Shown here: positions 441-26,047 of the stretch, in pieces
Layout of the letters: the number at the start of each line of letters is the position of its first letter
Position numbering within the stretch: the first letter of the stretch is position 1
IMG/VR virus record: IMGVR_UViG_3300023084_000105
Coordinates: 1 to 26,458 of that record
DNA length: 26,458 nucleotides
Strand: one strand, 5' to 3'
Source of the DNA: a virus
Program-made: the position numbers and the translations under genes
Notes under the pieces: generated by a model
The model's input: only the letters and a program-made list of their open reading frames with translations
Told to the model about the DNA's origin: nothing
Databases searched by the model: none

Positions 441-456
441 GCTCTAGAAAGAGCCT
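439..456. terminator. Hairpin between convergent genes (possible weak bidirectional terminator)
   Basis: AGGCTC and GAGCCT form a 6-bp perfect stem around the loop TAGAAA. The hairpin spans the 3-base gap between the terminase stop and the stop of the minus-strand gene. There is no T-tract on either side, so intrinsic termination would be weak. It could instead block converging polymerases or protect 3' ends. Confidence 0.35.
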
Positions 457-701
457 GCACCGTTGTATGTGCCGAGGTCGCGCTGTTGATCGCGCCACTC
501 GGCGTCGCTGTCGCTGGGGAACAGCTTGTCGAGGTCGAACGTGGGGAGGTTTTCCCCGCGCTTGTTGAGTTCGTCGCGGTAGCGATTGGCGTAAACGCCA
601 TTCATGTGCGACTTGGTGTGGCCGATTGCTCGGCAGTTGGTGATAAGCGCGTTGCGCAAGTAAGTGTAAAGGGTTGAGTTTGGTAGTGATGAAAGATCCA
701 T
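444..701 (-). CDS. Small hypothetical phage protein (85 aa), antisense to the structural genes
   Basis: The 85-residue product begins at an ATG with a near-perfect Shine-Dalgarno sequence, AGGAGGT at plus positions 706-712, which argues strongly that it is real. The N-terminal half looks helical and polar, with an RDELNKRGENLP segment near residues 42-53. The C-terminal third is acidic and Asp-rich. No signal peptide or membrane segment is seen. A promoter can be read upstream at 736-764. The gene is convergent with terminase and divergent from the structural operon, so it may be expressed at another time, perhaps early. I do not recognise a named family and no function is proposed. Plus-strand ORFs over the same interval look like shadows, because only this frame has a good ribosome-binding site. 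Confidence 0.75.
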   Translation of the reverse strand: MDLSSLPNSTLYTYLRNALITNCRAIGHTKSHMNGVYANRYRDELNKRGENLPTFDLDKLFPSDSDAEWRDQQRDLGTYNGAGSF

Positions 702-1704: not shown

Positions 1705-1931
1705 TGGCGGCGAAAAAGAAGGTTTCCGCTGCTCGTAAATACGCCAACGGCACGACGTATAAGGATTCCAAGGGCAAAACGCACAAGCGCGTCGCCCATC
1801 CCGGGACGAAGCGCGGCGACGCTTATTGCGCCCGGTCGAGCGGACAAAAGAGCAAGGACGGCACGAAATCGCCGAAATTGCGTGCGCGTCGTAAGGCGTG
1901 GGGCTGCAGAGGTAAAAAATCGGTCAAATGA
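1704..1931 (+). CDS. Small basic protein (75 aa)
   Basis: Starts in a TGATG overlap and has AGGAGG about 10 bases upstream (1688-1693). The product is strongly basic, with a KDSKGKTHKRVAHPGTKRG segment and a C-terminal half reading GDAYCARSSGQKSKDG, then an Arg/Lys run, AWGC and a lysine tail. Two cysteines (in YCARS and WGCRG) flank the basic region. I recall proteins with this HPGT-x-RGDAYCARS signature in marine phages, usually of unknown function; no search was made. It may bind DNA or be a small virion component. Its stop overlaps the following ATG by 4 bases (ATGA). Confidence 0.75.
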   Translation: MAAKKKVSAARKYANGTTYKDSKGKTHKRVAHPGTKRGDAYCARSSGQKSKDGTKSPKLRARRKAWGCRGKKSVK

Positions 1932-1942
1932 GCGTACTAGAC
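1926..1942 (+). repeat. 17-nt direct repeat at a gene start (copy 1; copy 2 at 2540-2556)
   Basis: The sequence AAATGAGCGTACTAGAC occurs at 1926-1942 and again at 2540-2556. In both places it contains the start codon of a gene overlapping the stop of the preceding gene, and it encodes MSVLD. The bases next to it diverge quickly. Confidence 0.9.
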
Positions 1943-2545
1943 GACATTATCCGCGGCGCCGGTGCATTTTTTCAGCGCCGCGCAATTGATGATGCGGTGC
2001 GGGTTGCGCGCAACCCTGGTAGCCGTGAAACTGTCGTCAGGATGTCGCCTCGCAAATTTTTGGATCTAGCGGAGCCTGGATACAGCGACGAGAAGATGCG
2101 CAACCTGCCTGACCCGGAGCAGGGTACAAAGTGGGAAAGCCTGCCATATCTTGGCGCTTACAACCAGGGCGACGGCACTTTGCGTGTAGATCAGCACGAG
2201 GGGCGCCACAGAGCGCGTATGCTGGCGGCAAAGGGCATACAGGACATGATGGTTCGGTTTAATCTGTTAGAAGGTGGTGACGGCCCTGCGTTGCGCTGGG
2301 GGCAGGCTGATGACGCTGCCAGATCTGCGTATCCGCGACGCGTTGTTGATGAAGTGGGCGTTATGGAGTACCCTATGGTCGACAGCTTGGTGTATCCCTT
2401 GGGAAATCTAAGCACTGATCGTGCGCGTGTTTATGTGCGTCCGGCAAAGCCTAAGACACCTATGGAAGAGGAAATTGATCGCCTGATTGAAGAGGAAGAG
2501 ATCAGGAGCTTGATAAATCAAATTTTGAGTGATTACGAAAAATGA
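1928..2545 (+). CDS. ParB/sulfiredoxin-like GRHR-motif protein (205 aa), polyvalent-type
   Basis: The central segment RMSPRKFLDLAEP (about residues 38-50) followed by DGTLRVDQHEGRHRARML (about 82-99) and then a strand MMVRF matches the layout of ParB/sulfiredoxin-like domains seen in phage polyvalent proteins. In these the (H/G)-x-G-R-H-R-A motif sits at the phosphate-binding helix. Known relatives of the fold include nucleases, kinases and NTP-binding proteins, so the activity is open. The N-terminus MSVLDDIIRGAGAFFQRR is an amphipathic helix shared in style with the next gene. The C-terminus (about 178-205) is a Glu-rich helix. It overlaps its neighbours by 4 bases on each side, so expression is coupled. 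It is a free-standing small protein, whereas this domain often sits inside giant injected polyproteins. Confidence 0.55.
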   Translation: MSVLDDIIRGAGAFFQRRAIDDAVRVARNPGSRETVVRMSPRKFLDLAEPGYSDEKMRNLPDPEQGTKWESLPYLGAYNQGDGTLRVDQHEGRHRARMLAAKGIQDMMVRFNLLEGGDGPALRWGQADDAARSAYPRRVVDEVGVMEYPMVDSLVYPLGNLSTDRARVYVRPAKPKTPMEEEIDRLIEEEEIRSLINQILSDYEK

Positions 2546-3393
2546 GCGTACTAGACACCATTGTTAAAACCGTAATCAGGTCAGCGCGTAAGCCTGGCAT
2601 TGAGATGGCTGACAAAATCCTGGAGCTGCGCCGGCAGGGTCGCGCGAACGAAGTGACCAACGAGATGATGGAGAAAGCTGACCAGGCGTACCTGTCGCAA
2701 AATTACCCGCTGCCCATGGACTTTGACAGCCGCATGCAGCGCGCGATGGATCTCGGTTATGACCTGGACGTGTTTTACCGAGGAACGCCGCGAGAGATGA
2801 GCGCAGAGCGTCCTAGTGATGTTTGGAGCAGCGATAACCCTTACGTCGGGTCGACTTATTCAGCGTACAGGCCAGAGCCGCCGAATGTGGCGTACCAAGG
2901 TGGCGCGGTTTTAACGCCTGTTGTAACGCGTCCTGGAAACCCGGCGGTTATTGACGCAAAAGATAACTTGTACGGATTGATCCCGCACAGCTCTGTCGCT
3001 GAGGCTGGCCTTGTTCCGCCGAGCGGACAGCCTGACGCAGCGTCAAGAACATTCGCGACAAATCAGCTGCGCGATATGGCGTTAGATTATTCTCCCCCTC
3101 GTGGCTATGATAGCGTAGAATTCCAGAACATCATTGATCGTGGATCGCAGCAGCTTGGAACGTTTTCTAAGAAGGATGGCAGGTTAATACCTGACATTGA
3201 AGCTCAAAAGGCGGCAAGCGTACCATCTCGGGTGCGTGTTGGGTTGCCAGAGGACATGCGCAGTATCTTTGGACGCTTTGACCCGGAGATGCGTCACTTG
3301 CGGCACCTGTCCTCCGGAGTTGCCGGGGCAGGCGCATTGCCGTATATTATTCAACAATATCTAGATGAGGCGGAAAATGAGCAACGCAGGTAA
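2542..3393 (+). CDS. ADP-ribosyltransferase-like protein (283 aa), polyvalent-type
   Basis: Residues about 58-84 (SRMQRAMDLGYDLDVFYRGTPREM) match the start of ART-like domains in phage polyvalent proteins, where the usual form is YHGT; here it is YRGT. SSDNPYVGSTY (about 96-106) fits the second NAD-binding strand, and RGYDSVEFQNIID (about 187-199) the late conserved block. The region DMRSIFGRFDPEMRHL (about 238-253) and a small hydrophobic stretch GVAGAGALPYII close the protein, as in known relatives. ART enzymes move ADP-ribose from NAD to proteins or nucleic acids. Activity is uncertain because the His is replaced and no clear ExE is visible. The start shares 17 nt with the preceding gene start and overlaps its stop by 4 bases. 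Confidence 0.6.
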   Translation: MSVLDTIVKTVIRSARKPGIEMADKILELRRQGRANEVTNEMMEKADQAYLSQNYPLPMDFDSRMQRAMDLGYDLDVFYRGTPREMSAERPSDVWSSDNPYVGSTYSAYRPEPPNVAYQGGAVLTPVVTRPGNPAVIDAKDNLYGLIPHSSVAEAGLVPPSGQPDAASRTFATNQLRDMALDYSPPRGYDSVEFQNIIDRGSQQLGTFSKKDGRLIPDIEAQKAASVPSRVRVGLPEDMRSIFGRFDPEMRHLRHLSSGVAGAGALPYIIQQYLDEAENEQRR

Positions 3394-4663
3394 ACTTGTT
3401 CTTAACGCGCTGCGCGGAGCAGCTGACGAGATCATCGATCCGCTGGAGAGCTTTTTGCGTCCCGCAGGATCTGATCCGCGGTATCGCGGTGCGGCGCCTA
3501 ACCGGACGATGAGCTACGAGCGATATGAGCCACGCAAGACGCCGGAAAGAATGTCGCGCTTGCAAGCGCAGCTAGAGGACGAAGCAAGCCCGTTGGTTGC
3601 GAAAATCACTGAGTACGTTAAAAAGGGTGAGACTTTAGACGGCCCAGATTGGTATAATACCGAAGAGCTGCGTGATTGGTTTATCGGCGTGCACGGCGCT
3701 GAAGAAGGTGACAAGCGCTGGCGTGACTTTGGTCGCCTTGTTGGTACGACATCTACGGGTTCAAAAGTTCCGCCCAACATTCGTAACGCGTCATTTTACA
3801 TGGCGCTAAGCCCGGAAGATCGTGTGCGTGTCGGCACGGCGGTTGCGCAGGGTGGAGGAACGCCTGCGGCGGTTGCAGAGAAACTCGGCATCCGGGTGCC
3901 TAACATGCCCGACAACTACCAGTACGGCCACAAAATGCAGCGCAACCAGGCGAGCAACGTTGTTTCGTATGAATCCGGAGGCTGGAACCCTGAGATCCCA
4001 GAGGGTTTGAGCGGGACGGAGTTGAACGATTATCTGAAGGCTAACCCGAAAGTGAAGGGGTTTGGCAATGACTTGCTCGGCGACGATAAAAATATCGCCG
4101 CAGACAAGCATTTTATGCGTATTTTAGCTATGGGTGACGGCGGTGGAGACTTCCTGTCGGCGCAGGCGCAATTGTCGGCTGAAAATTTCGACGTTGCCGC
4201 GCGCGCCATTGGACCGCGAAACATCAAGAACTACGTCGCGACGCGTATCGTGAACGGTAAGCCTGTTCGCGAGGTAAACCTCAAAAGAGCCTTTAAAGAT
4301 GGTAAGCTAAAAGACCCGTCAGTGTTTCAAGGCATCCCGACTGCGTGGGCTGACACGCCGAGCGGCACTGAGTATGCAGAGCTAGAGCGGTTGGCCGGGA
4401 TTATGGCAAAACGTTTCAATATGACGCCAGCACAGTTCCAGGCGTCGCTGTGGATGGGCGCAGGAGACGTCACAGGGCTTGCTGACGAGAGCCAAGGCAC
4501 ATTTATGCAGCTACTACGCGGAGCGATCAATAGGCGCGCTGCAGAGCGCGGTATCGAGCCGCAAGACATGCTGATGGACTTTATTAAGAACCGCGCGGTG
4601 CTGTCTGCGCCGTTTGCGATCCCGGTTGCCTCGGGCGCGATGAGAGAGCGGGGGCCACGGTAA
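3377..4663 (+). CDS. DUF7178-like polyvalent-type protein (428 aa)
   Basis: The frame is open from an ATG at 3365, but the ATG at 3377 is preferred because GAGGCGG lies just upstream and it gives the AAATGAGC start context of the two preceding genes. The protein carries DWYNTEELRDWFIGVHG (about 91-107), RWRDFGRLVGTTSTGSKVPP (114-133) with NIRNASFYM, YGHKMQRNQASN (183-194), KVKGFGNDLLGDDKNIAADK (225-244), and late YAELERLAGIMAKRF with FQASLWMGAGD. I recall this order from a domain of phage polyvalent proteins annotated DUF7178. The fixed Asp in DKH and the helical layout suggest a helix-hairpin-helix DNA-glycosylase-like fold, but that is speculation. It overlaps the ART-like gene by 17 bases and the next start by one. 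Confidence 0.55.
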   Translation: MSNAGKLVLNALRGAADEIIDPLESFLRPAGSDPRYRGAAPNRTMSYERYEPRKTPERMSRLQAQLEDEASPLVAKITEYVKKGETLDGPDWYNTEELRDWFIGVHGAEEGDKRWRDFGRLVGTTSTGSKVPPNIRNASFYMALSPEDRVRVGTAVAQGGGTPAAVAEKLGIRVPNMPDNYQYGHKMQRNQASNVVSYESGGWNPEIPEGLSGTELNDYLKANPKVKGFGNDLLGDDKNIAADKHFMRILAMGDGGGDFLSAQAQLSAENFDVAARAIGPRNIKNYVATRIVNGKPVREVNLKRAFKDGKLKDPSVFQGIPTAWADTPSGTEYAELERLAGIMAKRFNMTPAQFQASLWMGAGDVTGLADESQGTFMQLLRGAINRRAAERGIEPQDMLMDFIKNRAVLSAPFAIPVASGAMRERGPR

Positions 4664-5721
4664 TGGATTATTTGCAGGCTATACACAATCCAAATTTGCC
4701 TCCTCACATGCGCCCAGGATATGTAGGCGTCGACTATCTTGGTTTTCCTATGTATCAGAACCTCGACGGCTCTTTGATGTCAGAAAACCCTGAAGCAGCT
4801 ACAAGCCGTGACGTGACATTTATTGAGCGTGCAAAGGATTATTTAGTCGACAGCGGCGTGCCTAAAACGTCAGTAAATCGCTTGCTAGGCGGCAACCAGC
4901 TTGGTGACGGTGCTGGGTATCCAACGAGCACATTAGACAAGATCATGAACAATATTGGTCTGGCTAACGTAATGCCTGTCACCAGCACAGGTATCGGCGC
5001 AGCCAAAGTTGCCAGCGGTGAGCCTGAAGGTATGATTGACCTGGCACTGGCGCCTTTAGACTATTTCGGCCTCCGCCATGCCTATCGAGCAGCGCGTCAG
5101 GCTCCGGAGCTAGTGGAGCTAACACAAAGCCCTCAGACGCGCACATACTTTCAAGACATCTTGAAGCGTGCGCAGGACAGCCAGGGGCCGATTGGCAAGC
5201 AGGTGGACGTGTATGAGCCGGAAGAGTACGAGGGCATGACGCTTATGGCTAGTCCAAATGCCGACGCTGGCTTTGCAATCACGCCTGAAGGTGAGATCGT
5301 TTCACTTGTTAAGAACGCGGACAGCTCTATGAAAGGTTTTGCGTCAAAATCACTTGCAGAGGCGGCGCCAAATGGCGGCGTTTTTCTCAACGCGTTTGAC
5401 ACGTTCTTAACGGACTTATATGGAAAGAATGGCTATAGAGCTGTTTCGAGGATTCCCTTTGATGAAGATGTTATGCGGGATAGCATCGGGGATGAGGCGA
5501 CAGATGCGTTCATGGATGCCGCAAGGGATTACAATGAGGGCAAGCCGGACCTGGTGTTTATGGTGAAAGATCCAGACACTACATCGTATGTGCGAGGCGA
5601 AGGAGAAATGCTAGATGATTACATGGTTGCGCGGGGTCGTTTGGACCCGTTTGTTGAGCGTGAGAGACGCCTTTACGAAGACGACATCTTACGACGTTTA
5701 CGAAGATTATCCACAAGATGA
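4663..5721 (+). CDS. GNAT-like polyvalent-type protein (352 aa), C-terminus apparently frameshifted
   Basis: The start ATG overlaps the preceding stop (TAATG). The N-terminal half (1-130) is a linker with the motif PGYVGVDYLGFPMYQNLDG. Residues about 186-276 read GMTLMASPNADAGFAITPEG, then a strand EIVSLV, then GGVFLNAFDTFLTDLYGKNG and YRAVSRIPF. This order (strand, dGxiv strand, LxAFDxxLxxxY, GYRxVxRxPF) matches a GNAT-like acetyltransferase variant in phage polyvalent proteins. GKPDLVFMVKDPDT (about 293-306) is its usual ending block. The last residues (RRLRRLSTR) look aberrant. A 10-nt direct repeat 25 bp apart (5672-5706) shifts the frame, and the other frame continues to 5794, directly before the portal start. 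The true or ancestral protein may have ended there. Confidence 0.6.
   Translation: MDYLQAIHNPNLPPHMRPGYVGVDYLGFPMYQNLDGSLMSENPEAATSRDVTFIERAKDYLVDSGVPKTSVNRLLGGNQLGDGAGYPTSTLDKIMNNIGLANVMPVTSTGIGAAKVASGEPEGMIDLALAPLDYFGLRHAYRAARQAPELVELTQSPQTRTYFQDILKRAQDSQGPIGKQVDVYEPEEYEGMTLMASPNADAGFAITPEGEIVSLVKNADSSMKGFASKSLAEAAPNGGVFLNAFDTFLTDLYGKNGYRAVSRIPFDEDVMRDSIGDEATDAFMDAARDYNEGKPDLVFMVKDPDTTSYVRGEGEMLDDYMVARGRLDPFVERERRLYEDDILRRLRRLSTR
5672..5706 (+). repeat. 10-nt direct repeat flanking a frame-shifting 25-bp insertion
   Basis: TTTACGAAGA occurs at 5672-5681 and 5697-5706, an offset of 25 bp. Collapsing one repeat unit with its spacer joins RRLYED in the annotated frame to YPQDDVIRDIPRRYIEGL in the next frame. 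That frame stays open to a TAA at 5792-5794, one base before the portal ATG. Confidence 0.6.
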
Positions 5722-5795
5722 TGTAATTCGTGATATACCTCGTAGGTATATTGAAGGATTGAAGCGTCGAGACGCGGAGAGAAAAGGAAAATAAA

Positions 5796-7895
5796 ATGGC
5801 CCAGGATATGTCCTTTGAAGACTTTTTCGAGACGATGGACGAAATAGAACTCCAAGGGATCGTCGGCAAAGAAATCGATGACGCGGTCGATTACGTCGAC
5901 AATTGGGTTAGTCCGATCCGCTCGTTGGCTACCAAGTATTACCGGGGCGAGCCTTTTGGCGATGAAGAGGAAGGCCGCAGCCAAGTTGTCAGCATGGACG
6001 TACGGGATACCGTACAGGCGATCATGCCATCACTTATGCGGATCTTTCACGGCAACGAGAAGACGGTGCAGTATGTACCGCAAGGGCCGGAAGATGTTGC
6101 CGCGGCGAAGCAGGCGACAGATTATGTTAACTACATCGTAAATCGCGACAACAACGGCTTCCTGGTGACGCACGCTGCGTTTCAGGATGCATTGATTCGT
6201 AAGGTCGGTATTATCAAGGCATACTGGGACGATAAAACCCAGTTTGAGACGCACGATTTTACTGGCTTAGATGACCAGGCATTGGCTATTCTGCAAGCAG
6301 AAGAAGGCGTAGAAGTAAACGTCCTGCAGTCAGAAACCATTGGGGAGCCTACCATAGATGAAATGGGGCAGATGGTCATGCCGCCACAAGTTCATGCTGT
6401 TCAAGCGACGTACACGCGTCCGGATGGCCGCGTTAAGATCGAAGCGCTACCGCCAGAAGAATTCCTAATCAGCCGTGAAGCAAAAAGCATAGAAGAGGCT
6501 GACTTTGTTGCCCACCGTCGCATCGTCACTATCTCTGAGTTAGTGCAGATGGGCTATGACGCTGAGCAGTTCGAGACAATCGGCAGCGTGCACGATGACA
6601 TGGAAATGAACATTGAGCGCACGACGCGCAACCCGGCGCTACATCACGAGATGAACCAGCGCCATGACGACGCGATGCGCAAGATTATGTATGTGGAATC
6701 GTATATACGCGTTGACTACGATCAGGACGGGATTGCAGAGCTGCGTAAGATCTGCACCGTTGGTAACTCAAACGAAGTAATTATGAACGAACCGGTCGAT
6801 ATGGCGCCGTTTTGCGCGTTCTGCCCGGACCCCGAAGCACATGACTTTTTTGGCATGTCTGTAGCTGATACGGTGATGGACATCCAGCGGATCAAAAGTA
6901 ATGTGATGAGAAACACATTAGACAGCTTGGCGATGGCGATCCACCCACGCATGGCGGTGGTTGAGGGCATGGTTTCGTACGAAGATGCCATGAACACCGA
7001 GGTTGGTGCTATAATCCGCCAGCGCGCCGCCGGCCAGGTGCAGCCGATCACGATGCCGTTTGTGGGGCAGCAAGCGTTTCCAGTTCTGAGCTACCTTGAC
7101 GAGATCAAGGAAGCGCGCACGGGCGTCACAAAGGCCTCGCAGGGGCTTGATAGCTCTGCTCTGCAGTCAACGACTGCCGCAGCCGTTAACGCGACTGTGA
7201 CGCAAGCACAGCAGCGCATAGAGCTAATCGCGCGTATCTTTGCAGAAACTGGCATGAAAGACATGTATCGCATGATCCTGCGCTTGATCGTTAAGCACCA
7301 GGACCGTCCGCGCATGGTGCGTTTTAATGAGGATTTTGTTGAGATCGATCCGCGCGTGTGGGACACAAACATGGATGTTTCAGTAAACGTTGCGCTGGGT
7401 CGCGGCACTGATGTAGATCGCATGAACATGTTAATGCAGATCGGAAACATGCAGAAAGAGTCAATCATGCAAATGGGTCCAATGAACCCAGTAACTGACT
7501 TGTCAAAACTTACTAATACTATGCGCGAGTTTGCAGTGTTGGCTGGATACAAAGACGCTAACCAGTTCTTTAATGATCCGGAAACATATCGTCCACCGCC
7601 ACCGCAGCCAAAAGAACCTAAAATTGAAGAGCAGCTAGTCGCAGTGCAGATCCAGGAGATCCAGGCAAACATGCAGAAGAAAGCTGCAGAACTGCAAATT
7701 GAGCAAGAGCGCATCAGAATGGAAGACGACCGGAAGCGTGATGAGCTAGACGCGGAGCTGTTTATGAAGGCGGCAGAGATGCAGGCGAAGTATGGCACGC
7801 AGGTCGACGTTGCGCAGATCAGATCAGAAATGGAAATAAATCGTGAGGTGTTGAAGGCGCAAAACGATGTCATCAAAGGATCGCTAGATGACTAA
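5796..7895 (+). CDS. Portal protein (head-tail connector), P22-like
   Basis: At 699 residues the length fits the large podovirus portals of the P22 family, which form a dodecameric ring at one capsid vertex for DNA passage and tail attachment. Visible family features are the early DYVDNWVSPIRSLATKYYRG helix and an ATDYVNYIVNRDNNGF segment (about 107-122). The sequence DYDQDGIAELRKICTVGN (about 307-324) follows, then a long crown/wing region. Residues about 608-690 form a Glu/Lys/Gln-rich coiled coil beginning after a Pro-rich PPPPQPKEPK linker. This probably builds the barrel that reaches into the capsid. AAAAGG lies just upstream of the ATG. The 3' end overlaps the next gene by 8 bases. A long minus-strand ORF here is a codon shadow. 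Confidence 0.9.
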   Translation: MAQDMSFEDFFETMDEIELQGIVGKEIDDAVDYVDNWVSPIRSLATKYYRGEPFGDEEEGRSQVVSMDVRDTVQAIMPSLMRIFHGNEKTVQYVPQGPEDVAAAKQATDYVNYIVNRDNNGFLVTHAAFQDALIRKVGIIKAYWDDKTQFETHDFTGLDDQALAILQAEEGVEVNVLQSETIGEPTIDEMGQMVMPPQVHAVQATYTRPDGRVKIEALPPEEFLISREAKSIEEADFVAHRRIVTISELVQMGYDAEQFETIGSVHDDMEMNIERTTRNPALHHEMNQRHDDAMRKIMYVESYIRVDYDQDGIAELRKICTVGNSNEVIMNEPVDMAPFCAFCPDPEAHDFFGMSVADTVMDIQRIKSNVMRNTLDSLAMAIHPRMAVVEGMVSYEDAMNTEVGAIIRQRAAGQVQPITMPFVGQQAFPVLSYLDEIKEARTGVTKASQGLDSSALQSTTAAAVNATVTQAQQRIELIARIFAETGMKDMYRMILRLIVKHQDRPRMVRFNEDFVEIDPRVWDTNMDVSVNVALGRGTDVDRMNMLMQIGNMQKESIMQMGPMNPVTDLSKLTNTMREFAVLAGYKDANQFFNDPETYRPPPPQPKEPKIEEQLVAVQIQEIQANMQKKAAELQIEQERIRMEDDRKRDELDAELFMKAAEMQAKYGTQVDVAQIRSEMEINREVLKAQNDVIKGSLDD

Positions 7896-13304: not shown

Positions 13305-14783
13305 GTGCAGCAAATTGGCTTCCAAAAGAAAGTAGAGTGGAATACATCGGTTTCGACGAACCGTAGTACCACAACTACGTTCAATACCTCACGCAGCACA
13401 ACCACCACTTTTAATACAAGCCGTAGTACGTCAACAACGACTACGACGACCTTTAACACGTCCCACAGCACCACAACGACTTTCGCGACTAGCCATAGCA
13501 CGACTACCACTTTCGCCACTAGCAAGGCCACTACAACGACTTACACGACGTATTACAACACGTCACACGCTACAACGACAACATTTAACACCAGCCACAG
13601 TACGACGACTACGTTCAACACGACCCGTGCTACGACTACCACTTACACAACGTATTATAATACTTCACATAGTACGACGACGACCTTTAATACGTCACGC
13701 GCTACGACAACGACGTATCAGACTAGCCATACTACAAGTCACAGCACAACGACGACTTTCAATACAAGTCGAGCTACTACTACGACATACGCAACAAGTC
13801 GAAGTACAACTACTACATATCAAACATCGCACACAACATCGCACAGTACCACTACGACGTTCTCGACAAGTCGCAGTACCACTACAACGTACAATACGTC
13901 ACGATCTACGACTACGACTTACAATACGACGCGATCTACAACGACAACCTACACGACTACTTTTGCAACATCGCGGTCAACTTCAACATCGCGGTCAACG
14001 ACAACGACATTTAACACTTCGTTCCAAGACTATGTAGCAACAGATTACATGGCGGTAAATTACGTCGTTAATACATCGCAAAGCACAAGCCGATCAACGA
14101 CTACGACGTTTAACACCACTACAACCTTTAATACATCTCGTAGCACGTCACATAGCACAACTACGACTTTTGCAACCTCACACAGCACCACAACGACTTT
14201 TTCGACAAGTCACAGCACTACCACAACCTTTAACACTAGCCGCGCGACTACAACCACTTACACAACCTACTACAATACCTCTCACAGTACTACGACTACG
14301 TTCAACACAAGTCATAGCACGACAACAACATTCTCCACGACCCGCGCGACCACCACAACTTACACGACGTACTATAATACGTCGCATAGCACGACTACGA
14401 CGTTTTCTACATCTCAGGCAACAACCACCACCTATACGACCAGCCACACAACAAGTCACTCAACAACAACGACGTTTGCTACATCGCGCAGTACGACGAC
14501 CACTTACGCAACTAGCCGCAGTACGACCACAACGTATCAAACGAGCCATACGACATCGCACTCGACAACGACGACATTTAATACAACCCGTGCGACGACG
14601 ACCACTTACAACACCACAAGGTCAACAACGACAACATATTCTACAAGCCGCAGCACGACGACTACGTTTACCACAACTTTCAGTACGTCATCGACATTTA
14701 CAACGACTTTTGCTACTACTCGAAGCACCGTAACGACGTTTAATACTTTGCGCGTGACATCATTCTACGACCCTTCATCCTAA
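13305..14783 (+). CDS. Thr-rich decapeptide-repeat protein (492 aa), probable fibrous adhesin
   Basis: A GTG start is preceded by AGGGGG (13294-13299). After a short head (MQQIGFQKKVEWNTSVSTN) nearly the whole protein is a repeat of [FY]-[NAS]-T-S-[RH]-[SA]-T-T-T-T. About 37 copies of TTTT[FY] occur, and some units are enlarged to 14 residues by TTYY or QTSHT inserts. A non-repeat island (residues 240-259, FQDYVATDYMAVNYVVNTSQ) divides it into two halves that match each other unit by unit. Acidic residues are almost absent outside the head, the island and the end (YDPSS). The regular Thr strand with one aromatic and one basic residue per unit suggests an elongated beta-solenoid or fibre. No known family is recognised. 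It lies between a tail fibre and a glycosyltransferase-like gene, so it may be a glycosylated tail appendage; this is inference. Confidence 0.8.
   Translation: MQQIGFQKKVEWNTSVSTNRSTTTTFNTSRSTTTTFNTSRSTSTTTTTTFNTSHSTTTTFATSHSTTTTFATSKATTTTYTTYYNTSHATTTTFNTSHSTTTTFNTTRATTTTYTTYYNTSHSTTTTFNTSRATTTTYQTSHTTSHSTTTTFNTSRATTTTYATSRSTTTTYQTSHTTSHSTTTTFSTSRSTTTTYNTSRSTTTTYNTTRSTTTTYTTTFATSRSTSTSRSTTTTFNTSFQDYVATDYMAVNYVVNTSQSTSRSTTTTFNTTTTFNTSRSTSHSTTTTFATSHSTTTTFSTSHSTTTTFNTSRATTTTYTTYYNTSHSTTTTFNTSHSTTTTFSTTRATTTTYTTYYNTSHSTTTTFSTSQATTTTYTTSHTTSHSTTTTFATSRSTTTTYATSRSTTTTYQTSHTTSHSTTTTFNTTRATTTTYNTTRSTTTTYSTSRSTTTTFTTTFSTSSTFTTTFATTRSTVTTFNTLRVTSFYDPSS
13365..14669 (+). repeat. Degenerate 30-nt tandem repeat encoding STTTTFNTSR-type units
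   Basis: Roughly 37 units of 30 or 42 nt encode near-identical peptides, but the Thr codons ACA, ACC, ACG and ACT and the Ser, Arg and Asn codons are shuffled freely. Few long exact DNA repeats remain. A larger duplication is visible at protein level: unit n of the first half matches unit n+19 of the second. The halves are separated by a unique stretch at about 14022-14081. Confidence 0.85.
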
Positions 14784-21135: not shown

Positions 21136-21582
21136 TTGGGCGATAATGTTGTAAGATTGCACGCAAGCACAGGGCTACAGGTCTTGCCAGTGATGGAAAA
21201 CCATGAAGCTGCAATAATTGAGGCGTTACCACTTTTGCGCCCTTCTCTGCAGCGTGATGAACGAAACTGCGACGTGGACACAGCCCTGGATCAGATCCGA
21301 AACGGCAAGGTTACGCTGTGGATGGTCAGGCAAGAGGACAAGTTAGTAGGAACATTTACCACTGTTTCCCTGCAGCACCCTCAAAGAAAGACGCTTTATA
21401 TAGAGCATTTAGGAGGGAAAGACTTGCAGTCTTGGATGAACGAAGCATTGAGCACTTTGAGGAAATTAGCCGATTATGCTAATTGTAGTGCAATAACGTG
21501 TGATGGTCGCATAGGTTTTGCGCGGTTTGCGCAAGACAACGGGTTCAAAGAAATGCACCGCCACTTTGAGATGGAGCTGTAA
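21136..21582 (+). CDS. Small GNAT-like acetyltransferase-type protein (148 aa)
   Basis: The best start is TTG at 21136, with TGAGGG (21123-21128) 7 bases upstream; no in-frame ATG occurs before 21193. The second half reads GKVTLWMVRQEDKLVGTFTT, then TLYIEHLGGKDLQSWMNEAL, then a long helix, AITCDGRIGFARFAQDNG and F-K-E-M. This order resembles GNAT-type proteins in phage structural clusters, where the substrate is unknown. The classical R/Q-x-x-G-x-G/A acetyl-CoA loop is not evident; LGGK may replace it. Its position between the fibre knob and ejection genes is unusual for an enzyme. It could modify a virion protein or be a structural derivative of the fold. Confidence 0.6.
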   Translation: MGDNVVRLHASTGLQVLPVMENHEAAIIEALPLLRPSLQRDERNCDVDTALDQIRNGKVTLWMVRQEDKLVGTFTTVSLQHPQRKTLYIEHLGGKDLQSWMNEALSTLRKLADYANCSAITCDGRIGFARFAQDNGFKEMHRHFEMEL

Positions 21583-23807: not shown

Positions 23808-23818
23808 GGGGCTTGCGT

Positions 23819-26047
23819 ATGGCTGGACCGATTGAAATGACAGATGCAGGCAAGGATACAGGCCTTCCTGTTGAAGCCCTGCAGACAGCGCCAGAGCGCG
23901 AAGGCTATGACATTGTCGAGGATTTTGGCAATGGATCAGCGATCTATCGCAGCAAGACATCAGGCAATGAGGTTTTTGTTGACAGCAACAGTGGCTACTC
24001 ATCGCCAGATCCCGACATAATCAAGTTGGCGCGAGAGGGTGGTCGGCAAGCCGTAGGCCAGAGATCGCAGGAAGGCTTTGCAGGGCAAGGTGTCCGCGAC
24101 ACAGCTGGTGGCCAAGCGCAGCGCATCATGAACCTGGGAGACTACATGCCCGGGTTGCGCGGATACCTGCCAGGCATTGCAGAGGCCGCGTCAGGAGGCA
24201 AAGTGTCTCCGGAGCTGTACGACATGGCAATTGAAGATTATCGCACTCAGAACCCCGTACAATCGGTCGCAGAGGGCTTTGGCGGCGCTGGGGGCATAGG
24301 CGCGATCCTTGGCCTGCCTGCAGTCGGCGGTAACCTACTGCGCCGCATAGTTCTCGGTGGCGCAGCTGGCGCAGCTGGTGGGGGCACTGAAGGCGCTATC
24401 GCTGGTTATGGTCGCGGCGGTGCAGAGGGTGCCGCAGAAGAAGCTGTGCCAGGCGCTATTGGTGGCGGCTTGTTTGGCTTGGCGTTACCGGGCGTCGGCG
24501 CTGGGATCTCTTCAGCGTACGGGCGTTACCTGGAGAAACCTGTGCGCAGCGTGCTGGAGGACATTGGGTTTAAGGGCAAGGCCGCAGAGGTGGCCAAAGA
24601 TTTTATAGCAATGGATTCAGCGACCGCAGTGCAGAGCGCAGAGAAAGCAGGCCCATACGGTAGCATTGGCATGCTTGGCCCTAACACTGAGGCGCTGCTT
24701 GACACTGTCGCTAATACGCCAGGCGAAGCGCGCAAGACAGTGATCGATAATGTCACCGATACCGCGCGCAAAGCATCCAACGATCTGACAGATACAGCTG
24801 ACGACGTGCTAGGAAAGCCTGTAGGCGACCTAGAGATGCAAAAGCGCACAATTATGGACAACAGCCGCGAAGCGCGCACAGAAGCCTATGGAGAGGCTTA
24901 CAGCGTCCCTGTGGACATCGGCACTGCAGAGGGCGCCCAGCTTGCAGACCTGTACAGCCAAGTGCCTGCTCGCATTTTAAACCGCGTCAACGAAACATTG
25001 CAGTTGGAAGGGCTTCCAACCTTAGTGCGCGCAGGACGTTACACAGAGGCGCAGCTGAACGAGCTGATGTCGAGCGGCCAGCAGCTAGGAAATCTAGACG
25101 TCCGCAGTATGCCGGACGGCTCATACACTGTACGCAGCGTGCCTAGCATTGAAAACATAGACGACTTATCACGGCAGCTATATAACATGGCCTCCGGCAT
25201 TACCGAAGATCCTGGCGCGAAATCAGCGCTGCGCGGTCTGGCGACACAGATGCGTAAGGTAGCGGATGAGGTGAGTCCTGCATTCAAGCAGGCACGCCTG
25301 GAAGGAAAGACGGCTATCGATCAGAAAGCCGCTGCAGAACTCGGTGATAGCTTACTGAATCCTAAAGTAACGCGCCAGCAAATTGCTGACGAATTAGCGA
25401 ACATGGGTGACGTTGAGGTTGCCCAGGTCAAGCAAGCGTTGCGTAACAGGTTAGACGAGATCGCAGCCAATGCGAAAAACCCGCCAACCGGGCGGCAAGA
25501 GCAAGAAGTCATTGAGGCTTTGGCGCAACTGCGTGCAATGAATACGCGTGCAGTTGCGTCAAAATTACGCTCTGTGCTCGGTGCCGAGGACTTTGAAAAG
25601 TTCTCCAACCAAATTGCGTCAACCACTGGCGCGCTAATGATGAACGCGTCTATCGCTGCCAACTCACGGACCTACATTCGGAACCAAGTTGAACAACGGT
25701 TCCGGGAGATCATTGGCGAACCTATGGGCGATGCAATAAGAAACCAGGGTCTAGTCGGTGCGGCGACCGAGCGCGGCATGCGTGGCTTCTTTGGCCCATC
25801 GCAGTCGGAGCAGGTGCAAGAGGTGGCCGCAGAGATGGCGCCAATCTTGACGCAGCGCATGACCCCGGAAGATCTGCTACGCCAGGCGCAGGCTCTTGAG
25901 CGAGCAACGCCGGCAATCACACGCGCGCAGCGTGGGCGTCGTCAGGCACGGCAAGCGGTAGGCGCGCTAGGCTTTGGACCCACAGTCACGCAAGGTGAAG
26001 AGGACAGCCCAACGCGCCGTCTACTACTTAGCCTTGGCCTTCGTTGA
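23819..26047 (+). CDS. Internal virion / DNA ejection protein 3 with glycine-zipper region (742 aa)
   Basis: A TTG at 23813 is also in frame, but ATG 23819 is preferred because AAGGGG (23806-23811) lies 7 bases upstream. The N-terminal 60 residues are acidic, with FGNGSAIYRSKTSGNEVFVD. A YDMAIEDYRTQNPVQSVAEG helix is followed by a Gly/Ala-rich hydrophobic region (about 154-235) with several GxxxG patterns (FGGAGGIGAILGLPAVGG, GGAAGAAGGGTEGAIAGYG). This region could insert in the host membrane. The rest is almost wholly helical and charged. At 742 residues it is the longest gene, but far below tape-measure length for a long tail. It fits a large P22 gp16-like ejection protein. The 3' end overlaps a convergent minus-strand gene by 24 bases. 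Confidence 0.7.
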   Translation: MAGPIEMTDAGKDTGLPVEALQTAPEREGYDIVEDFGNGSAIYRSKTSGNEVFVDSNSGYSSPDPDIIKLAREGGRQAVGQRSQEGFAGQGVRDTAGGQAQRIMNLGDYMPGLRGYLPGIAEAASGGKVSPELYDMAIEDYRTQNPVQSVAEGFGGAGGIGAILGLPAVGGNLLRRIVLGGAAGAAGGGTEGAIAGYGRGGAEGAAEEAVPGAIGGGLFGLALPGVGAGISSAYGRYLEKPVRSVLEDIGFKGKAAEVAKDFIAMDSATAVQSAEKAGPYGSIGMLGPNTEALLDTVANTPGEARKTVIDNVTDTARKASNDLTDTADDVLGKPVGDLEMQKRTIMDNSREARTEAYGEAYSVPVDIGTAEGAQLADLYSQVPARILNRVNETLQLEGLPTLVRAGRYTEAQLNELMSSGQQLGNLDVRSMPDGSYTVRSVPSIENIDDLSRQLYNMASGITEDPGAKSALRGLATQMRKVADEVSPAFKQARLEGKTAIDQKAAAELGDSLLNPKVTRQQIADELANMGDVEVAQVKQALRNRLDEIAANAKNPPTGRQEQEVIEALAQLRAMNTRAVASKLRSVLGAEDFEKFSNQIASTTGALMMNASIAANSRTYIRNQVEQRFREIIGEPMGDAIRNQGLVGAATERGMRGFFGPSQSEQVQEVAAEMAPILTQRMTPEDLLRQAQALERATPAITRAQRGRRQARQAVGALGFGPTVTQGEEDSPTRRLLLSLGLR

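What the first reader, a model, noticed from the sequence alone, without database searches (positions are those of the whole stretch)
1928..5794. Four coupled genes that look like split modules of a phage polyvalent protein
Seen: four consecutive genes with 1-17 base overlaps carry, in order, a GRHR ParB/sulfiredoxin-like motif, an ART-like YRGT...SSDNP...GYDSVEF pattern, a DUF7178-like pattern and a GNAT-like AFDxxLxxxYxxxGYRxVxRxPF pattern. Known: such domains are usually fused in giant polyvalent proteins delivered with phage or conjugative DNA and thought to counter host defences. Inference: here the same toolkit is kept as separate small proteins in the late operon next to the portal. Separate expression would let each be packaged or evolve independently, and may define a modular injected counter-defence or host-takeover island.
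Basis: partly seen in the sequence, partly recalled or inferred. Interest (0 to 1): 0.85.

Follow-up and report, generated by a model that had tools for sequence, protein, structure and literature searches.

The report
Phage effector toolkit as separate genes
Next to its DNA-portal gene, this bacterial virus carries four or five small overlapping genes whose products match pieces that other phages fuse into one large protein, thought to be injected to subdue the host cell; here the pieces are made separately, and no experiment has yet shown that they are injected.

Summary
Four genes overlap by 4, 17 and 1 bases (1928-5721) just upstream of an SU10-type portal gene, and a conserved fifth small gene (5615-5794) overlaps the last.

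Assignments, strongest first:
- G4 is a GNAT: its AlphaFold model hits GNATs in the PDB, and its domain sits in giant phage proteins and in VG15/MuF-type minor capsid proteins.
- G3 is a helical domain with no solved relative. It lies beside terminase or portal in dozens of viral contigs and is fused to lytic transglycosylase/lysozyme or ART elsewhere; its fold recurs in 'ART-PolyVal' giant proteins.
- G2 is a divergent ART-PolyVal relative with Arg in place of the catalytic His.
- G1 (ParB/sulfiredoxin-like) is the weakest call: one motif and one distant match.

Limnohabitans phage DC33 and relatives read ART, G3-like, GNAT in one polypeptide; an Octadecabacter podovirus fuses a ParB-like segment to ART; another contig fuses G3 to ART. 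All four in one protein were not found.

Solo polyvalent modules beside virion genes were already described (Iyer 2017), so this is a new variant of a known kind. Packaging, ejection and counter-defence remain inference.

The parts
1928..2545 (+). G1, 205 aa, ParB/sulfiredoxin-like (HEGRHR motif); tentative
   Evidence: No Pfam or NCBIfam family, no meaningful PHROG hit and no relative in viral contigs. Best Smith-Waterman match is the ParB-like segment of Octadecabacter DB virus 2 gp6, upstream of its ART: score 59 against a shuffle mean of 35.6, sd 6.0, reached by 2 of 1000 shuffles.
2542..3393 (+). G2, 283 aa, divergent ART-PolyVal-like ADP-ribosyltransferase with YRGT in place of YHGT
   Evidence: phmmer E 1.7e-21 to L032, 5.9e-11 to L089, 1e-7 to L088, 1.4e-6 to L078 (small local database). 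These relatives hit PF18760 just below its cut-off. G2-family profile aligns with the ART-PolyVal region of DC33: hhalign probability 94%, E 1.2e-7.
3377..4663 (+). G3, helical polyvalent-type domain, DUF7178-like (ORF opens at 3365; likely start ATG 3377)
   Evidence: 76 loci in viral contigs (36 after removing near-copies), near terL or portal. AF2 pLDDT 89.5, pTM 0.86. No PDB fold match. BFVD matches to SleB and ART-PolyVal-like giant proteins.
4663..5721 (+). G4, 352 aa: N-terminal extension (about 1-150) plus GNAT acetyltransferase fold (about 157-302)
   Evidence: AF2 model; all 50 listed PDB fold hits are acetyltransferases of the GNAT/GCN5 kind. phrog_2563 E 1.1e-7. Domain found in giant phage proteins and in VG15/minor-capsid fusions.
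5615..5794 (+). G5, 59 aa small gene overlapping the G4 3' end by 107 bases; alternatively a frameshifted tail of G4
   Evidence: AAGGAG upstream of ATG 5615; 16 synonymous and 2 non-synonymous codon changes in the non-overlapping part against L003.
1927..1948 (+). Repeated gene-start sequence AATGAGCGTACTAGACnnCATT at G1 (protein MSVLDxI)
   Evidence: Exactly two copies in the window; none expected in shuffles.
2541..2562 (+). Second copy of the gene-start sequence, at G2
   Evidence: not found elsewhere in the viral contigs.
5796..7895 (+). SU10-type portal protein, which anchors the position of the cluster
   Evidence: PF23899 E 2.3e-206.

Best explanation
The cluster encodes, as separate proteins, modules that other phages fuse into polyvalent proteins: a ParB/sulfiredoxin-like protein, an ART-PolyVal relative, a helical DUF7178-like domain and a GNAT acetyltransferase. 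They are read from overlapping stop/start sites next to the portal gene, probably off one late mRNA. The likely working is that the products enter the capsid near the portal during assembly, leave with the DNA, and modify host proteins (GNAT, and ART if active) or nucleic acid (ParB-like) at the start of infection; G3 probably serves as a carrier or virion-associated core, since relatives attach it to lysozyme or transglycosylase. Shown: gene structure, selection, GNAT fold, G3 family and its fusions. Well supported: ART relationship, module order. Tentative: ParB relationship. Inferred: co-transcription, packaging, ejection, host targets.
For: Overlapping genes under purifying selection. G4 GNAT fold. 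GNAT domain in dozens of giant proteins and behind a VG15 domain in the minor capsid protein next to the portal in Microbacterium phage Caron, and in the minor capsid protein of a Methanobrevibacter virus. G3 fused to SLT transglycosylase (L069, L070, L072), whose PHROG hits include internal virion protein with endolysin domain, or to phage lysozyme (L031, L046), and to ART (L032). G3 fold in BFVD 'ART-PolyVal-like' and SleB giant proteins. DC33 order LPD22, ART (661-850), G3-like motifs (from about 924), GNAT (1363-1559). ParB-like segment then ART in Octadecabacter DB virus 2 gp6, two small genes after terL, with the ParB slot held by GNAT-like segments in L088 and L089. Separate PBECR5 polyvalent RNase genes near G3 in L065 and in phage CRP-901.
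Against: No virion proteomics was found for any relative. G2 has Arg where this ART family has His, so it may be inactive or altered. The G1 assignment is weak and not seen in a second genome. The profile-profile score between G3 and the DC33 segment (24.5) was not above the best of 60 column shuffles (25.0). No fused form holds all four modules in one protein.
Confidence: 0.68

Rival explanations
1. G3 is an ordinary virion component (core or ejection protein) needed for assembly or DNA entry, and G1, G2 and G4 are accessory genes that merely sit in the late operon and act inside the producing cell, for example against superinfecting phages, without being packaged.
For: G3 is widespread and highly conserved (94% identity to L003, against 86% for the portal), near terL or portal, while G2 and G4 in this split form were found in only a handful of contigs. 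Linkage to structural genes alone does not prove packaging.
Against: The G4 domain is fused to minor capsid proteins and a G2-like ART to G3 in other phages, which ties them physically to virion-type proteins.
Confidence: 0.2
2. The genes are products of a recent break-up of a fused polyvalent protein and are decaying or partly non-functional, with the Arg-for-His change in G2 as a first sign.
For: YRGT replaces YHGT in the window and L003; G4 evolves faster than G2 and G3.
Against: dN/dS is well below 1 for G2, G3 and G4; starts are regular; the GNAT tree does not place the window clearly inside the fused forms.
Confidence: 0.07
3. The resemblance to polyvalent modules is only partial: G1 is not ParB-like and G2 is not an enzyme, so only G3 and G4 belong to the polyvalent repertoire.
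Against: G2 aligns with ART-PolyVal segments by two routes.
Confidence: 0.1

Closest known systems
Phage polyvalent proteins (Iyer et al. 2017, PMC5512222)
   Same: Same kinds of domain (ART, GNAT, ParB/Srx, uncharacterised domains), same position among late virion genes.
   Different: There, two to fifteen domains are fused in one polypeptide; here each module is its own gene. Iyer et al. already report solo DdrB-like ParB and solo GNAT genes near virion genes, so the split state as such is not new.
Giant protein of Limnohabitans phage DC33 (XLZ15523.1, 3125 aa) and relatives
   Same: ART, G3-like and GNAT segments in the same order as genes G2, G3, G4.
   Different: One polypeptide with LPD22 and a long further C-terminal half; no GRHR-type motif seen.
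Octadecabacter Antarctic DB virus 2 gp6 (493 aa) and L088/L089
   Same: ParB-like segment before an ART, shortly after terL in a podovirus; pre-ART and C-terminal motifs shared with G2.
   Different: Fused; ART keeps His; in L088/L089 the ParB-like slot holds a GNAT-like segment instead.
MuF/VG15-type minor capsid proteins with C-terminal effector domains (Microbacterium phage Caron gp4)
   Same: Carries the same GNAT family next to the portal gene.
   Different: G4 has no VG15/MuF domain; its N-terminal part matches no library model.
T4 Alt and internal proteins
   Same: Model for separate, packaged and injected host-modifying proteins.
   Different: No sequence relationship tested or claimed; comparison from PMC5512222 and general knowledge.

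Membership tests
Polyvalent protein (Iyer et al. 2017) | Several disparate domains in one polypeptide | tested here: not met
   G1-G4 are separate ORFs with their own starts and stops.
Polyvalent protein (Iyer et al. 2017) | Domains drawn from the polyvalent repertoire | tested here: met
   Met for G2, G3 and G4 through fusions and fold hits; G1 tentative.
Polyvalent protein (Iyer et al. 2017) | Encoded among late virion genes | tested here: met
   Directly upstream of the SU10-type portal and downstream of a terminase-like fragment.
Polyvalent protein (Iyer et al. 2017) | Packaged and injected with the DNA | not testable with these tools
   Needs virion proteomics.
ART-PolyVal (PF18760) | Score above the curated cut-off | tested here: not met
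   G2 has no Pfam hit at E up to 10; relatives score 20.3 (L032) to 31.1 (L088) against 31.2.
ART-PolyVal (PF18760) | His-Tyr-Asp active site (PMC5512222, section on ARTs) | tested here: not met
   Strand-1 His is Arg (YRGT); Tyr106 of the second motif is conserved in all four aligned sequences, and GYD is present in G2.
GNAT acetyltransferase | GNAT fold | tested here: met
   AF2 domain residues about 157-302; PDB hits up to probability 0.99, TM-score to target up to 0.58; best E-value 0.007.
GNAT acetyltransferase | Acetyl-CoA-binding motif A | tested here: inconclusive
   KGFASKSL in the window and RGIARTLL in Caron lie at the expected place but are not canonical.
DUF7178 (PF23802) | Score above the curated cut-off | tested here: not met
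   G3 16.1 bits; L057 22.4 against 27.
ParB/sulfiredoxin superfamily | Conserved G-x-H-R motif and fold | tested here: inconclusive
   Motif present; no profile hit; fold not predicted.
MuF polymorphic toxin | N-terminal MuF/VG15 domain | tested here: not met
   No such hit in G4.

The most novel reading that the evidence does not exclude
Split effector modules carry a short shared N-terminal leader that addresses them to the capsid, so that any module placed behind the leader is packaged; gene-by-gene swapping then replaces domain shuffling. The leader is MSVLDxI in G1 and G2, and similar within-genome sharing of the first 15-30 residues is seen between G3 and a PBECR5 gene in phage CRP-901 and between G3 and its neighbours in L065.
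Probability: 0.15. Interest if true: 0.75.

Novelty: new variant of a known kind. Interest (0 to 1): 0.48.

Why it matters
Polyvalent proteins are hard to study because many activities sit in one giant chain. A phage that makes the same modules as small separate proteins would allow each to be expressed, knocked out and sought in the virion on its own. G3 adds a widespread, highly conserved phage domain without a solved relative, linked to lytic enzymes and ARTs.

Tried and rejected
1. G3 as a helix-hairpin-helix DNA glycosylase, suggested by the ADKHFMR motif: no glycosylase among the 50 listed PDB fold hits and no TM-score above 0.2 in that list.
2. G3 and the DC33 middle segment by hhalign: score 24.5, E 0.043, null maximum 25.0. 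Hence I rely on the motif series TSxGxxVxxN ... LxG ... D4R, found in G3 ORFs, in GNAT-bearing giant ORFs and in three ORFs that are broken parts of the same giant family. It was never seen in 20 rounds of shuffled proteins, but it was chosen after seeing both alignments. A comparison with a single DUF7178 segment (L159) gave nothing.
3. L138/L139 as a second natural split of the GNAT: the reading frame is broken between the ORFs, so an assembly or sequencing error is as likely.
4. A general N-terminal leader shared by G3 and all its neighbours: no enrichment over core genes (6.7% against 6.9% at p up to 0.05); only individual pairs stand out.
5. The G1/G2 start sequence as a mobile cassette: no other copy in viral contigs.
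6. Direction of change (split to fused or back): GNAT tree unresolved, with long branches; several 'solo' labels there are contig ends.
7. DNA similarity to phage records and a scan of bacterial genomes for G3: no DNA match, and one genome contig only.
8. RNA families and promoter or terminator patterns: none beyond chance.
Full report
What is there. The window is a 26,458-base virus record with an SU10-type portal gene at 5796-7895 (PF23899, E 2.3e-206). Immediately upstream lie four overlapping genes, G1 1928-2545, G2 2542-3393, G3 3377-4663 and G4 4663-5721, with overlaps of 4, 17 and 1 bases, and a fifth, G5 5615-5794, that overlaps G4. G5 is real by codon use: 16 synonymous and 2 non-synonymous changes in its own part against L003; I cannot exclude that it is reached by a frameshift from G4. 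G2, G3 and G4 are under purifying selection (dN/dS 0.063, 0.067, 0.147). The order G2-G3-G4-portal recurs in L002 and L003. G1 could not be followed in another genome, because the related contigs begin inside G2 or later.

G4. A profile of the family found GNAT structures at low significance (1q2y, E 0.0088; that 1q2y is a GNAT is from my own knowledge). The AlphaFold model has a confident C-terminal domain with the strand and helix order of a GNAT, and the PDB fold search returned GCN5, PCAF, phosphinothricin and other N-acetyltransferases throughout the listed hits (best probability 0.99, TM-score to target up to 0.58; best E-value 0.007). The same domain occurs inside proteins of 2000-3500 residues in many viral contigs, behind a VG15 domain in the minor capsid protein next to the portal in Microbacterium phage Caron, in the minor capsid protein of a Methanobrevibacter virus, and in small proteins of Nostoc and Haloarcula phages.

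G3. It has 76 related loci in viral contigs (36 after removing near-copies) and only one in the bacterial genome collection. Its neighbours include terminase and portal genes. The model is confident (pLDDT 89.5, pTM 0.86). No solved structure resembles it, but predicted viral proteins do, among them a SleB cell-wall hydrolase and three ART-PolyVal-like proteins of 906-1477 residues. In L069, L070 and L072 the domain follows a transglycosylase SLT domain; for L069 the PHROG matches include 'internal virion protein with endolysin domain'. In L031 and L046 it follows a phage lysozyme; in L032 an ART follows it. L032 shares the C-terminal tail of L031 and L046, which suggests that the ART was inserted or lost within one protein lineage (inference).

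G2. No library model recognises it directly. It matches L032, L088, L089 and L078, and those carry sub-threshold or borderline ART-PolyVal hits. The family profile also aligns with the ART-PolyVal region of DC33 (hhalign probability 94%). Iyer et al. (PMC5512222) give His-Tyr-Asp as the active site of this ART class; G2 has Arg in place of His and keeps the Tyr and a GYD. Activity is therefore uncertain.

G1. The evidence is the HEGRHR motif and a Smith-Waterman match, reached by 2 of 1000 shuffles, to the segment of Octadecabacter DB virus 2 gp6 that precedes its ART. That segment is itself ParB-like by eye only. In L088 and L089, orthologues of gp6, GNAT-like segments occupy the same slot. 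A separate protein that looks ParB-like (239 aa, EGNHR) lies near G3 in L012-L014 and L016, also without a Pfam hit.

Fusion test. I find ParB-like then ART (Octadecabacter DB virus 2), G3 then ART (L032), and ART, G3-like, GNAT in that order in DC33 and its relatives. The G3-like part of DC33 rests on a motif series with near-equal spacing (WY; TSxGxxVxxN; LxG-D4R about 109 residues later; QAxxW) found in 42 of 63 fetched ORFs above 1500 residues and never in shuffled sequences; the profile-profile score alone is not significant. L159 holds DUF7178 above its cut-off, GNAT and a sub-threshold ART in another order. No protein with all four was found.

Mechanism. Polyvalent proteins are thought to be packaged and injected (PMC5512222). 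The fusions of G3 to lytic enzymes and of the GNAT to minor capsid proteins make packaging and ejection of these products the most economical reading. No proteomic data were found; the paper on the Octadecabacter phage does not mention mass spectrometry or gp6.

Novelty. Iyer et al. report solo ParB and GNAT genes near virion genes and argue that polyvalent proteins were assembled from solo modules. A run of four modules, partly collinear with the domains of fused proteins, next to the portal is a new variant. The shared start of G1 and G2, limited to the first residues, and similar pairs in CRP-901 and L065 may be packaging leaders; this is a weak lead, since the group test was negative.

Noticed in passing
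window 13305-14783: 492-aa ORF made almost wholly of S/T-rich repeats (RSTTTTFNTS type), with DNA periods of 30 and 102 bases; no Pfam family.
   Followed up: partly
window 23813-26047: 744-aa ORF with a glycine/alanine-rich hydrophobic stretch, without a Pfam family; by eye it looks like an internal virion or ejection protein.
   Followed up: no
window 21136-21582: 148-aa ORF that by eye resembles a second, small acetyltransferase; no Pfam hit.
   Followed up: no
L065 6616-8004 and L081 9009-10568: Separate PBECR5 nuclease genes next to or near G3 in other phages, including Roseobacter phage CRP-901 gp66, with N-termini resembling that of G3 in the same genome.
   Followed up: partly
L078 2752-4233, L088 3056-4660, L089 1206-2693: Orthologous proteins with near-identical ends in which the middle slot is ParB-like or one of two GNAT-like segments, a clear case of domain exchange.
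   Followed up: partly
L080 (record PQ492659.1): Limnohabitans phage DC33 is labelled Inoviridae in its record although it has a 39-kb genome with a 3125-aa polyvalent protein; the label looks wrong.
   Followed up: no
window 444-701 (- strand): 85-aa ORF on the opposite strand between the terminase end and the late genes, not examined.
   Followed up: no
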